A stretch of DNA of 64,000 nucleotides from Phanerochaete sordida (Eukaryota > Basidiomycota > Agaricomycetes > Polyporales > Phanerochaetaceae). The notes under the pieces are model-generated. The model was not told the DNA's origin. It made no database searches and worked only from the letters and a program-made list of their open reading frames with translations. The translations under genes and the position numbers were made by a program. Shown piece by piece: positions 6,317 through 20,418 of this stretch; the first letter of the stretch is position 1; every line of letters begins with the position of its first letter. The DNA lies in assembly GCA_019973155.2 (NCBI GenBank), contig BPQB01000022.1:405896-469895 (forward strand), read 5' to 3'.

Positions 6317-6572
6317 CGTGCATTGGCATGTGGATTTGGTGACTGGTGACTATGTACTCAGATAGTAGTGCTTCAGTGGTACTCATGCGACCTTGGTCTC
6401 GCAGCCGTTCCATGTTTTTGCCGCCCGCCACAATGCAATATTATTTGACCTTCATATTGTAATAGGATACGGCCCACACAAGGATACACATGCCACAGTA
6501 CGCGCACAGCTCTCCCCGTCGAGGAGTCCCCTTGCCATTGTCGACGAGCGCCGCCGATAAGCTCTGATCCCC

Positions 6573-7793
6573 CTAGACGTTCGCACGCAATATCCGCACG
6601 AGGCGTTCCGGCTCGTCCCACTGGAACTGGCGGCGCAGCAGCGTCAGGCAGGCGGCACGCACGGAAGGCGACACAGCGCTTACACAGTGGTTCGCGCCCT
6701 CGATCTGCACGAGCGCCGCCTCGCGCAGGCGGCCGCCGGGCACGGGGCCGTCCTTCACTCGCTCGGCGAACTCCTTCGCGGCCCAGAGCGCCAGCCAGAT
6801 GCTGCGCTCGCACCAGAGCGCGACGACGCGCACGCGCGGAAGCGCGGCGTCCGCGTCGCCCAGCCCGCGCGCGAAGTTCGCGGCGTACACCGACGGCGCG
6901 ACGCCGAGGAACGCGACGGAGGCCTCCAGGTTGTCCGGCTCGACGATGCGCGCGGCGGCGTCACCGGCGAGCGTGTGCAGCGTCGGCGGGCGGCCCTCCT
7001 CGTCCGTGCGCGCGCGCAGACCCTCGGGCGTGATGTCGCCGACGGCGCGCACCGCGGTGTAGTAGCCCGAGACCCAGGCCCCGAACGCGGCGGCCTTGTC
7101 CGCGGGCGGCACGGCAGGGTCGTCGAGGGGGCTCCCGAGCCCGATGTCGGGCCACACGCCGTACATGCACGCCGGCGGGTCTGCGGCGGGCTGTCAGCGC
7201 CGCGCGCGTCAGTGCAGGGAGGGGGCGCACCGAAGGCGAAGGCGGTGTGGAGGTACGGCGCGAGCGCGGTGTGCTGCGCGGGCGTGAGCGTCGCGGGGTC
7301 GCCGAGCATGGCGAAGAGGCCCGCAGTGCTCAGCGACCACGTCAGCACCGCGAGCCCACCGCGCGTCTCCCCGGCGTGGACCGCCGTCGGCGGGATGCCG
7401 AGCACCGTGCACACGTACACGAGGAAGCCGGCGAACTCGCGGCCGAAGCCGCGGAGGGCGTTCGTCTGGACGGCGAGGTCTTCGTCGGTGAAAGCCGCGA
7501 GCTCTTCTGCCGTGTAGGGCGTCGAGCCGTTGTAGCCGCGCATGTTGAGCGCGAGCAACCTCAGGCCGTGCTTTGCTGCGTGCGGTAGCATGCCCTCAAA
7601 GATGCCTGGAAATCATCGTTTCATGTTTTAGCTCATATTGAAGGAATGAAGCAAAGGCGCAGCGACGCTCACCACCGTTGATAGTGGCGCCATGGATGAG
7701 GACGATGGTTGTGTAGTCGGGGACGTTGGGCGGGATTCCACTATCGGTGTAGTAGAAGACGGTGTCCTTGTCGTCTATACGTGCGAAAGGCAT
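6573..7793 (-). CDS. Alpha/beta hydrolase fold protein
   Basis: Three exons on the minus strand (7793-7673, 7605-7231, 7180-6573; introns of 67 and 50 bp) give about 367 residues. The first exon ends with the oxyanion-hole strand TIVLIHGATING. It is followed by LRLLALNMRGYNGS, a typical lid/strand segment. At the expected nucleophile elbow the sequence is T-W-S-L-S rather than G-x-S-x-G, so the serine is present but both glycines are replaced. A late His sits in EGANHCVS, as in the usual triad. The fold assignment is firm; the reaction is not. Members of this fungal group are usually annotated as epoxide-hydrolase-like or esterase-like. It is convergent with the small gene at 5805-6316. Confidence 0.82.
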
Positions 7794-9315
7794 GATGGGC
7801 GAGCGATGTGCCGCTCGAGGAGAGGCGACGGTACCTTATATACGCTACGCCACAAAATCAGCACTCGTATCTGCCCGGGCACAGGTACATTTCTGTGGCG
7901 CGGACCGAATGGCGCGGCCAGATGTCAGGGACGCGAGACCGCAGCCCACAGCATTGCTCATCGCGTAGGCACGCGAAGGCCTTGTTTGTCGTGGGCGGTC
8001 CTGTTCGGGGGAAGCACATGCGGGCGGGCCCGCACGCCCACCTGCGGCGGCGCTCGCGCGGCGCGCTTTGCGCAAGGCACGCGGATAGCGAGCCTAAGAA
8101 CGATAGTCCGACTGCTTCTCTGGTGTGCCCCTGCATCATGACAGGGCCTCTCCGGCGACTGTGCCTGCTCCGGGGCCAGGAATGTCCCTGGCCACATCCG
8201 GGCTTGGGCGGAGCCGCTTGTGCGGCAGTCCGGGCGCCCCTGGGGAACCCTCTTGTCGTAAGGCGGGTACCGCATCCCGTCAGAAAATCTTCGCGCCCCT
8301 ACCCGCGAAGCACTCTGTGCCTGCTCGAGCACACGGGTCGGCGTGAGGGGGAACCTTCGGCTCCCTGGATCGTGTCAGGGCATTGATGTCGTCTTGTAGA
8401 GCCTGGAAGGTAGAGATTGTGCATAAAAACTCCAGAAAATGATTACGGCAGATGAGCCAGAGGTCTCACTTACAACCAGACAGTCGACAAACAAACAGAA
8501 GGCAGCCGGAGCCTTGCACAGCGTGCCGCTAGCCCACGAGGAGAAGGCGGAAGCTTCTCGGACTGACCTGACGGGCTGGAAAAGCAGCCGCTTCCATCAA
8601 GCAAATAGGCGTTGAACGTTTGTTTCACATGGAACAGGCCAAGACAAGGATATGTCGACGGAGTACCCGGCCGTGACCCGACCACCAAGTCGCCGTGTAC
8701 GAGACAACATCGGCAGGACGCTGTGGAGATCATGGATCAAGGAGGTATTCTCCTGCCTCTACCCACGAAGCATCTCGTGCCTTCTCGAGCACGCGGGTCA
8801 GCGTGGCGGGGAAAGCTTCAGTACCCTGAATTGCGTCAAGGCGTCATTTTCGTCTTGACGAGCCTGGAAAGCAAGAGTCATGTACAGAGGCATCAAAACA
8901 TGATCACAGCACGCAAGGATATGTCAGAGGTCTCACCTCTAACCAGATCTTTGACCGAAAAGCAGAAGCCAGACAGAAGCTTGCAGAGCGAGCCGCTGGT
9001 GCTCGAAGACAAGCGAAAGCCTCGCACGCTGACCGGACATGCCAGCGGGCGCATCTCCAGCAACCGGATAGCTGTCGAATGTAGGTTTCATCCGCAACAA
9101 ACCAAAAGGAGGGTATGTCGCCGGAATGCCACCAGGTCGCCGTGTGCGACGGAACATCGGCAGGACGTCGTCGGCGTCGCAGGTAAAGCTGGGCCCGGCG
9201 GGAGGCGCCACGGCGCCAATTCCCTGATGCGCCATCAGAGGACCGGAGGCAACGCCCCGCGCCCCGTCCCGGACTCTCACCACCGACCACCACCCGCCCG
9301 CCTCCGTCCGCGCGC
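7794..9315. other. Intergenic with diverged tandem repeat, no gene supported
   Basis: Apart from the two repeat copies described separately (about 8291-9166), I see no supported gene. Open frames on both strands are short, mutually overlapping and lack recognisable motifs. Confidence 0.6.
8291..9166. repeat. Diverged direct repeat, two copies of about 420-440 bp
   Basis: Copy 1 (about 8291-8724) and copy 2 (about 8751-9166) share a colinear series of blocks: CTACCC(G/A)CGAAGCA, CTCGAGCAC(A/G)CGGGTC, AGCCTGGAA, CAGAGGTCTCAC, GAAGC near the middle, then AAGTCGCCGTGT or AGGTCGCCGTGT, and ACATCGGCAGGACG at the end. Identity is patchy with many small gaps, so the duplication is old. No terminal inverted repeat, target-site duplication or intact open frame common to both copies is visible. 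Its nature is unknown: it could be a decayed non-coding element or a relic of a duplicated gene read on the minus strand. Confidence 0.6.
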
Positions 9316-18356: not shown

Positions 18357-18962
18357 TCAGCCCCTCCCACTGCCCCACGCCTGCTGCCGGAGCGCGACGT
18401 TCTCGGAGTAAAGCTGCTCGTTCGTCTGGCGGAGGCGCGCGACCTCCGCGCGCAGCTGCGCTGCCTCCGCGCCGCTCGCGTCGTACTCCGCCTGGAGCGC
18501 GGCGACCTGCGCGCCGAGCGACTGAAGCAGCGCGTGCATCGCCGCGTGCGCGCCCTGCGCCTCCTCGCACACGCGCGCGAGCGCGAGCAGGCCCGGGAAG
18601 AGTGTAGGTGGGCCGTTCGCTGTGCGGCGCTCAGCACAACTGTGCAGCACGCATGAACGGGAAGACGCACCTTGCGGAGGCCCGCCAAACCCGCCAGGCC
18701 AAGCCGGCGGTCCTTGCGCGCCCGCACCCGCCGCCCCGTCTGCGGCGCCGTTCGCCTCTGCCTTCGCCTTCGGTGCGGCACGCTTGCGCTTCTTGGGCAC
18801 GGCGGCGGCGGGGTCGCCCGCGAGCGTCGGTGCGACAACTTTGCGGGACGTCGAGGAGAGGGCCTTGCGCGGCGCCTTGGAGCCCGTCGACTTGCGCGCG
18901 GTCTGCTTCGTGCGCGCGCCGGTGGGCGTGGGCGCGGAGGCGTCGTCTTCCCAGTCGTCCAT
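18357..18962 (-). CDS. Histone H3-tail mimic with NLS and leucine zipper
   Basis: The minus-strand frame starts MDDWEDDASAPTPTG and continues directly into [18 protein letters not shown], which differs from the H3 tail (residues 1-18) only at Gly13 to Ser. R2, K4, R8, K9, S10, T11, K14, R17 and K18 equivalents are present at residues 17-33. A basic PKKRKR cluster (residues 56-61) looks like a nuclear localisation signal, followed by an Ala/Gly/Pro-rich linker. The C-terminus is a leucine zipper with Leu every seventh residue four times, in LRAEVARLRQTNEQL and onward, with no basic bZIP region before it. A 51 bp in-frame intron (18620-18670) is likely; splicing gives 184 residues, read-through 201. 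Its neighbour is the real H3 gene, but codons differ at about half of the shared residues, so this is not a fresh copy. I know no characterised protein of this design. Confidence 0.8.
   Translation of the reverse strand: MDDWEDDASAPTPTGARTKQTARKSTGSKAPRKALSSTSRKVVAPTLAGDPAAAVPKKRKRAAPKAKAEANGAADGAAGAGAQGPPAWPGGFGGPPQGASSRSCVLHSCAERRTANGPPTLFPGLLALARVCEEAQGAHAAMHALLQSLGAQVAALQAEYDASGAEAAQLRAEVARLRQTNEQLYSENVALRQQAWGSGRG

Positions 18963-19762: not shown

Positions 19763-20418
<656 letters not shown>

What the first reader, a model, noticed from the sequence alone, without database searches (positions are those of the whole stretch)
18357..18962. A zipper protein carrying a near-perfect histone H3 tail, next to the H3 gene
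Seen: 17 of 18 residues of the H3 N-terminal tail ([18 protein letters not shown]) sit at residues 16-33 of a protein that lacks the histone fold and instead has a PKKRKR cluster and a four-heptad leucine zipper. About half of the shared codons differ at synonymous positions from the H3 gene 0.9 kb away, so the match is held by selection on protein, not by recent copying. Known: H3 K4, K9 and K14 are read and written by chromatin enzymes, and short H3-like mimics can compete for them. Inference: a dimeric nuclear decoy or scaffold for H3-tail enzymes. The tail is internal, so N-terminal readers would need processing of the first 15 residues.
Basis: partly seen in the sequence, partly recalled or inferred. 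Interest (0 to 1): 0.92.

Follow-up and report, generated by a model that had tools for sequence, protein, structure and literature searches.

The report
Fungal zipper proteins bearing H3 tails
A wood-rotting fungus makes a small coiled-coil protein that carries an almost perfect copy of the regulatory tail of histone H3, and relatives with the same tail occur in other fungi, which suggests a family of natural histone-tail mimics that may act on the gene-silencing machinery.

Summary
The window (white-rot fungus Phanerochaete sordida) encodes a 184-residue protein (PsYK624_078730; one 51-nt intron) with 17 of 18 H3 tail residues at 16-33, a PKKRKR cluster and a C-terminal leucine zipper, but no detectable histone fold. 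An intact H3 gene lies 800 bp upstream on the same strand.

It is not a lone chimera. Two tandem paralogues lie elsewhere in the genome; a zipper-only query finds both. Relatives occur in Phlebiopsis gigantea and unnamed public contigs. Across nine proteins H3 2-12 is 96% identical (all pairs), against 26% for the linker and 52% for the zipper. A second class (Daedalea, Peniophora, unnamed contigs) carries four tails and no recognised domain.

Over 30 tails A7, R8, K9 and G12 never change, and K14 is kept in 4. R8-G12 is the published footprint of the H3K9 methyltransferase DIM-5. I favour a multivalent H3K9-site mimic, a decoy or scaffold for H3K9 writers or readers. Conservation and architecture are shown; dimerisation, binding, methylation, expression and the sign of the effect are not.

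The parts
18357..18962 (-). H3-tail zipper gene (PsYK624_078730), two exons, 184 aa
   Evidence: ORF, spliced reading, identical to deposited protein P0001
18620..18670 (-). 51-nt phase-1 intron, GT..AG
   Evidence: the deposited protein equals the spliced reading; gene B has a phase-1 intron at what reads as the matching place
18864..18917 (-). H3 tail copy, residues 16-33 ([18 protein letters not shown])
   Evidence: in a PDB sequence search the 60 shown of 130 matches are H3-family chains, reaching at most residues 16-50
18780..18797 (-). basic cluster PKKRKR, residues 56-61 (candidate nuclear localisation signal)
   Evidence: similar clusters in 6 of 9 zipper proteins by reading
18372..18596 (-). 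single long helix, residues 106-180
   Evidence: AlphaFold2 model, one helix 106-180, pLDDT mostly above 90; no secondary structure and low confidence before it
18390..18455 (-). leucine zipper, Leu 153/160/167/174, Asn 164 and 171 at core 'a' positions
   Evidence: N164 invariant in alignments A2, A5, A7
19763..20403 (-). intact histone H3 gene, 4 exons; exon 1 encodes [31 protein letters not shown]

Best explanation
The protein is a coiled-coil, probably dimeric, nuclear protein that displays a copy of the H3 tail on a flexible arm. It belongs to a small conserved family of non-histone H3-tail mimics. The part kept in every counted tail is the site read and written around H3K9 (A7-R8-K9-S/T10-T/S11-G12), so the likely partner is the Clr4/DIM-5-type H3K9 methyltransferase and, once the equivalent lysine (K24 here) is methylated, chromodomain readers. 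By offering paired tails off chromatin it would compete with nucleosomes for these factors (decoy) or gather them at a site (scaffold). Shown here: the anatomy, the family, and the conservation of the tail core and the zipper. Inferred: dimerisation, nuclear location, K24 methylation, reader binding, and which way it tips silencing.
For: Over 30 tails in 15 proteins, A7, R8, K9 and G12 are 30 of 30; T11 29 (S once); S10 is S 23 or T 7; K14 is 4 of 30, K18 9 of 30, Q19 2 of 30 (the search pattern itself fixed A7-R8, K or M at 9, S or T at 10, and S, T or I at 11). An unanchored scan found the same tails and no further window above the shuffle maximum. In Neurospora only R8-G12 are needed for DIM-5 in vitro and K14R does not impair it (PMC3248561, abstract and passages). 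SUV39H1 demands R8, prefers T/S/A/Y at T6, K then R at K4, R/K/S/T at S10 and small residues at T11 (PMC8303541, passages); of 14 departures seen at positions 4, 6, 8, 10, 11 and 12, 12 are of these kinds (T6Y 2, K4R 2, S10T 7, T11S 1) and two K4G are not. Zipper-only search of the genome found three loci with E < 1e-3, all bearing a tail. Tail core 0.96, linker 0.26, zipper 0.52 all-pairs identity. A long helix with Asn at the core 'a' position (that this marks parallel dimers is recalled) fits a dimer. Two Pre-SET loci and 29 chromodomain matches are in the genome. Four-tail proteins reach multivalency another way.
Against: No expression, modification or binding data. In the zipper class R2, T3 and K4 are also 10 of 10, although K4L did not impair DIM-5 in vitro, so a K4-side partner may matter as well or instead. 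The window protein itself keeps K14 and K18. Six tails of P0104 and P0158 left out of the count include one with M at K9 and I at T11 and one with W at G12. No chromo-shadow domain (HP1) was found, though the control genomes were silent too. The 30 tails are not independent; several proteins are close relatives. The family tree has no well-supported inner branch. The Neurospora effects concern H3 that can enter nucleosomes, which this protein should not.
Confidence: 0.5

Rival explanations
1. The tail serves the K4 side: it binds factors that read or write H3 R2-T3-K4 (COMPASS, LSD1-type demethylase, PHD fingers), like the SNAG domain that recruits LSD1.
For: R2, T3 and K4 are 10 of 10 in the zipper class. 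In Phlebiopsis the tail starts at residue 3.
Against: Many such readers need the free H3 N-terminus (recalled); here 15 residues precede the tail and A1 is kept in only 4 of 10 zipper tails. In the four-tail class T3 is 9 of 20 and K4 16 of 20.
Confidence: 0.13
2. It is a mitotic factor whose tail is a substrate of Aurora or haspin kinase, shugoshin-like, tethered by its coiled coil.
For: R8 and S/T10 are 30 of 30, though both were asked for by the search pattern. Weak sub-threshold match to the shugoshin N-terminal coiled coil, 17.6 bits against a cut-off of 30.
Against: An Aurora site would not need A7, T11 and G12 to be fixed (inference). The shugoshin match covers only 27 residues of zipper and is one of 19 listed families, all below their cut-offs.
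Confidence: 0.1
3. The tail acts as a general basic patch, a nuclear localisation signal or nucleic-acid arm, and its H3 likeness is only a matter of descent.
For: The H3 tail is basic and can act as an import signal (recalled). A separate basic cluster is also present.
Against: G12 (30 of 30), T11 (29) and P16 (28) are not explained by charge, while lysines 14 and 18 are often lost.
Confidence: 0.12
4. It is a decaying or recent chimera made by copying exon 1 of the neighbouring H3 gene.
For: The H3 gene lies 800 bp away and its exon 1 ends at residue 31; likeness to H3 reaches residue 49-50.
Against: The tail is retained in paralogues on another contig and in Phlebiopsis gigantea and unnamed contigs. 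Synonymous divergence from H3 is high while the protein is kept (9 of 14.7 synonymous against 2 of 39.3 replacement sites; Fisher p about 4e-5 after rounding).
Confidence: 0.05

Closest known systems
H3K9 mimics of G9a/GLP (automethylated histone-like motifs)
   Same: A non-histone protein carries an H3K9-like site whose methylation makes an HP1 binding site (PMC9768651, passages).
   Different: There a motif inside the enzyme; here 11-18 residues of tail in a separate small coiled-coil protein, conserved across a family.
LIG1 K126 and PAF15 (ligands of UHRF1)
   Same: H3-like sequences in non-histone proteins read by H3 readers: VRTK of PAF15 by the PHD domain, methylated LIG1 by the tandem Tudor domain (PMC8034647, passages).
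   Different: PAF15 shares a four-residue stretch with the H3 end (VRTK for ARTK); no leucine zipper is mentioned in the passages seen; other proteins and setting.
SNAG domain of SNAIL/GFI1 (LSD1 recruitment)
   Same: An N-terminal H3-tail mimic on a nuclear protein (recalled; search listing only).
   Different: Depends on a free N-terminus and is only loosely H3-like in sequence (both recalled).
bZIP leucine zippers
   Same: Leucine heptads with core Asn.
   Different: No basic DNA-binding region joined to the zipper; Pfam bZIP not among the families listed for P0001, and below cut-off in relatives P0067 (14.5 of 27.6 bits) and P0105 (22.6 of 27.6).
Histone H3
   Same: Tail, 17 of 18 residues.
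   Different: No histone Pfam match.

Membership tests
Histone H3 | Histone fold | tested here: not met
   No histone Pfam family at E <= 1 for P0001, P0003, gene A or gene B; the model has one long helix only
Histone H3 | Conserved N-terminal tail | tested here: met
   17 of 18, but internal, from residue 16
H3K9-site mimic (G9a/LIG1 kind) | ARK[S/T]-type motif in a non-histone protein | tested here: met
   Present in P0001 and in the 30 tails counted, which were found with that motif; unanchored check
H3K9-site mimic (G9a/LIG1 kind) | Lysine methylated in cells | not testable with these tools
   needs mass spectrometry
H3K9-site mimic (G9a/LIG1 kind) | Bound by HP1 or another H3K9me reader | not testable with these tools
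   needs binding assay
bZIP transcription factor | Leucine zipper | tested here: met
   L153/160/167/174 with N164
bZIP transcription factor | Basic region directly before the zipper | tested here: not met
   By reading, residues 106-150 are mostly neutral or acidic; PKKRKR lies about 90 residues upstream; bZIP not listed for P0001
SNAG-type LSD1 ligand | Mimic at the free N-terminus | tested here: not met
   15 residues precede the tail; processing cannot be excluded
PAF15 | N-terminal VRTK and PCNA-binding box | tested here: not met
   By reading the 184 aa: no N-terminal VRTK and no adjacent aromatic pair as a PCNA box needs (box recalled)
Shugoshin | Shugoshin N-terminal coiled coil | tested here: not met
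   17.6 bits, cut-off 30

The most novel reading that the evidence does not exclude
Mushroom-forming fungi keep a dedicated set of soluble pseudo-nucleosome tails: proteins that present H3 tails in pairs (zipper class) or in fours (tandem class), with K9 and the writer's footprint intact but usually without K14. They would soak up or gather the H3K9 methyltransferase, its readers, or the chromodomain integrases of retroelements, and so set the threshold of heterochromatin. Tails without K14 could enter the Clr4 pocket but could not take the K14 ubiquitin that licenses it.
Probability: 0.3. Interest if true: 0.92.

Novelty: new variant of a known kind. Interest (0 to 1): 0.8.

Why it matters
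Histone mimicry is known from H3-like motifs in chromatin enzymes and other nuclear proteins and in viral proteins (recalled). A conserved fungal family built round a nearly full H3 tail, in paired and four-fold forms without a recognisable histone fold, would be a natural experiment on which tail residues matter when packing into nucleosomes is no longer required. Its substitution pattern already separates the K9 site (kept) from K14 and K18 (mostly lost). If the proteins are methylated they would be endogenous competitors for heterochromatin enzymes and could serve as ready-made probes. None of the papers listed by my searches describes them (searches list 20 of 26 and 20 of 40 papers; open-licence PubMed Central only; judged from titles and abstract starts).

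Tried and rejected
Chance match: rejected. Isolated or recent chimera: rejected by paralogues, relatives and codon divergence. Viral source: a DNA pattern for RTKQTARK[S/T]TG found nothing in viral contigs (exact pattern only, so weak). Hits L008 and L012, weak matches of the paralogue queries, were read and dropped as chance; other weak own-genome hits (C84, E 0.006 and above) were not read. Fold search of the model against the PDB gave 0 matches, uninformative for a single helix. The family tree is unresolved (0 of 6 inner branches starred). A quick neutral simulation used a loose stopping rule (5 synonymous codons; 894 of 3000 runs reached it, 2.8% of these with at most 1 replacement), so the simple site counts are preferred. 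The chromo-shadow search found nothing, but its controls were silent. Of the chromodomain loci I read the frames of three: L039 looks like CHD1, L040 is an integrase end, L041 showed nothing clear.

Rows left out: the 30-tail count leaves out 6 tails of P0104 and P0158 (printed there; one has M at K9 and I at T11, one W at G12, so including them would break the invariance of K9 and G12), the vWA protein, the nematode protein P0123, and all histone-fold proteins. The pattern itself asked for A7-R8, K or M at 9, S or T at 10, and S, T or I at 11; one search is the unanchored check. Database listings show 120 of 718 and 120 of 457 hits, from about 8000 scored candidates each; I read every listed hit without a precomputed Pfam domain (one of them, P0120, is a histone H3 piece by reading), plus P0005, P0019, P0102, P0106 and P0123. 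Relatives missing from those lists cannot be excluded. Own-genome searches work exon by exon, so a tail split by an intron would be missed.

Full report
What is there. The reverse strand at 18962-18357 encodes MDDWEDDASAPTPTG followed by [18 protein letters not shown], then PKKRKR at 56-61 and a C-terminal zipper. A 51-nt GT-AG intron at 18620-18670 is in frame; removing it gives 184 aa, identical to the deposited P. sordida protein PsYK624_078730. The tail matches H3 1-18 of the neighbouring gene at 17 of 18 residues; 9 of those 17 codons differ synonymously. The score of 84 (self 90) compares with at most 29 in 50 shuffles. The neighbouring H3 gene is intact on the same strand, with four exons and its stop 800 bp from the zipper start codon.

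Structure. AlphaFold2 on eight relatives gives one helix, 106-180, mostly above pLDDT 90, and no structure with confidence before it, tail included. Leucines 153, 160, 167 and 174 make four heptads with Asn at 164 and 171 in the core position. Asn 164 is invariant in 6 of 6, 8 of 8 and 8 of 8 sequences of three overlapping alignments. A core Asn is recalled as the mark of parallel dimeric zippers. The Pfam families listed at E <= 1 are none of them above cut-off and mostly coiled coils. A PDB sequence search matched 130 sequences at E <= 1; the 60 shown are H3-family chains (one Cse4, some H3/CENP-A chimeras), through residues 16-50 at most.

A family, not a chimera. A 30-residue H3 tail query on the own genome found three places: the H3 gene, this gene, and C146. 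C146 holds two tandem genes: A (PsYK624_166210; my spliced model has one residue more than the deposited one) and B, each with a tail, a phase-1 intron before the helix and a C-terminal coiled coil. A query made only of the zipper helix of relative P0003 found this gene (3e-25), A (6e-5) and B (5e-4), and one weak hit at 0.2 read as chance; so all three significant zipper hits carry the tail, although the tail was not in the query. Protein searches added P0002-P0004, P0044 and P0046 from unnamed public contigs and P0067 of Phlebiopsis gigantea; P0105, also unnamed, joins a tail to a longer zipper. P0003 and P0004 come from contigs of the same length (2131), perhaps one contig and another tandem pair.

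Selection. Over nine zipper proteins all-pairs identity is 0.96 for H3 2-12, 0.54 for H3 13-18, 0.26 for the linker, 0.35 for helix 106-150 and 0.52 for 151-180. Against H3 the 18 tail codons show 9 synonymous differences over 14.7 sites and 2 replacement differences over 39.3 (dS about 1.28, dN about 0.05; Fisher p about 4e-5 after rounding). H3 itself is constrained, so the fairer pair is this gene against B over 12 codons: 5.5 of 10.3 and 2.5 of 25.7 (p about 0.02 after rounding). This gene and A share more bases of those codons with each other (32 of 36) than with H3 (28 and 29 of 36), in line with one origin of the class and no recent copying from the neighbour. Tail likeness to H3 extends past exon 1's end at H3 residue 31 only weakly; an origin from H3 exon 1 is an inference.

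A second class. The profile searches also found proteins with four tails each: P0054 (Daedalea quercina), P0148 (Peniophora sp. CONT), and P0058, P0121 and P0122 from unnamed contigs. Four of these five were scanned with Pfam and match no family at E <= 0.1; P0121 was not scanned. P0104 has two tails and an acidic stretch; P0158 has four tails and another body.

Which residues matter. In 30 tails of 15 proteins (10 zipper, 5 four-tail), A7, R8, K9 and G12 are 30 of 30, T11 29, R2 28, T6 28, P16 28, K4 26, Q5 25, S10 23 (T in the other 7), G13 20, T3 19, K18 9, K14 4 and Q19 2. The pattern used there fixed A7 and R8 and limited positions 9-11; an unanchored scan found the same tails and nothing else above the shuffle maximum. 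Six tails of P0104 and P0158 left out of the count include one with K9M and T11I and one with G12W.

How it may work. In Neurospora only R8-G12 are required for the H3K9 methyltransferase DIM-5 in vitro; [quoted passage not shown] SUV39H1 demands R8, takes T, S, A or Y at T6, K or more weakly R at K4, and small residues at T11; SUV39H2 reads R8, S10, T11 and G12, with T6, A7, G13 and K14 also important (PMC8303541, passages). Of 14 departures at positions 4, 6, 8, 10, 11 and 12 in the 30 tails, 12 are of kinds accepted by SUV39H1, eight of them at positions 10 and 11 where the pattern limited what could be found; the two K4G are not. In fission yeast the Clr4 pocket serves as receptor for K14 ubiquitination of H3, and H3K14ub stimulates Clr4 more than 250-fold (PMC12407891, a preprint, and PMC8443253, abstracts). 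A tail lacking K14 could thus enter the pocket without that step (inference). This applies to 26 of 30 mimic tails, but the window protein keeps K14. The genome has two Pre-SET loci and 29 chromodomain matches; of three scanned, two carry integrase core and zinc domains and the third a Tf2-1-like SH3 domain as in retroelement integrases, and one other, read by eye, looks like CHD1. HP1 was not identified. I therefore favour a multivalent H3K9-site mimic; decoy or scaffold is open.

What argues otherwise. R2-T3-K4 are fixed in the zipper class (10 of 10) beyond what DIM-5 needs in vitro, so a K4-side partner is a live rival, although the tail is internal here. Expression is unknown. Named species are few: P. 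sordida and Phlebiopsis gigantea for the zipper class, Daedalea and Peniophora for the four-tail class; the listings show the best 120 of 718 and of 457 hits, so the true spread is unknown.

Known context. G9a and GLP carry automethylated histone-like motifs that bind HP1 (PMC9768651, passages); many human proteins carry H3K9-like short motifs (PMC10611923, passages); UHRF1 reads VRTK of PAF15 and methylated LIG1 (PMC8034647, passages). None of the papers listed by my searches describes, by title or abstract start, an H3-tail zipper or four-tail family in fungi; the library is limited to open-licence papers.

Noticed in passing
L014 / L026:3800-5173 (-), own genome C30: A frame of 457 aa carries a permuted H3 tail, AARKQLATTAARKTAAAPTG (like H3 17-34) followed by [12 protein letters not shown]. 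The frame upstream is a von Willebrand A domain (38.5 bits, cut-off 27); the tail frame itself stays below cut-off (18.5); that they are one gene is inferred. A second, separate architecture in the same genome.
   Followed up: partly
P0054, P0058, P0121, P0122, P0148: Proteins with four H3 tails and no recognised domain in Daedalea, Peniophora and unnamed contigs (Pfam on four of the five).
   Followed up: partly
P0158: Unnamed protein of 406 aa with four H3 tails, several followed by KQLATR-like sequence and acidic stretches; different body, lineage unknown.
   Followed up: no
P0104: Unnamed protein with two H3 tails, the first at the very N-terminus, and a long acidic region.
   Followed up: no
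L046 (own genome C146:30000-39669): The tandem tail genes A and B lie among several open frames that look by eye like related hypothetical proteins, and beside a 450-aa coiled-coil-like frame (6488-7840, -).
   Followed up: no
own genome, C16, C31, C111, C22, C1: Four H3-like loci besides one more diverged at C1, which may be CENP-A; only the C22 tail was found by the 30-residue search. The others may be split by introns, which was not checked.
   Followed up: no
own genome, 29 chromodomain matches: Chromodomains are abundant; of three frames scanned, two hold integrase domains and one a Tf2-1-like SH3 domain: possible clients of an H3K9 mimic.
   Followed up: partly
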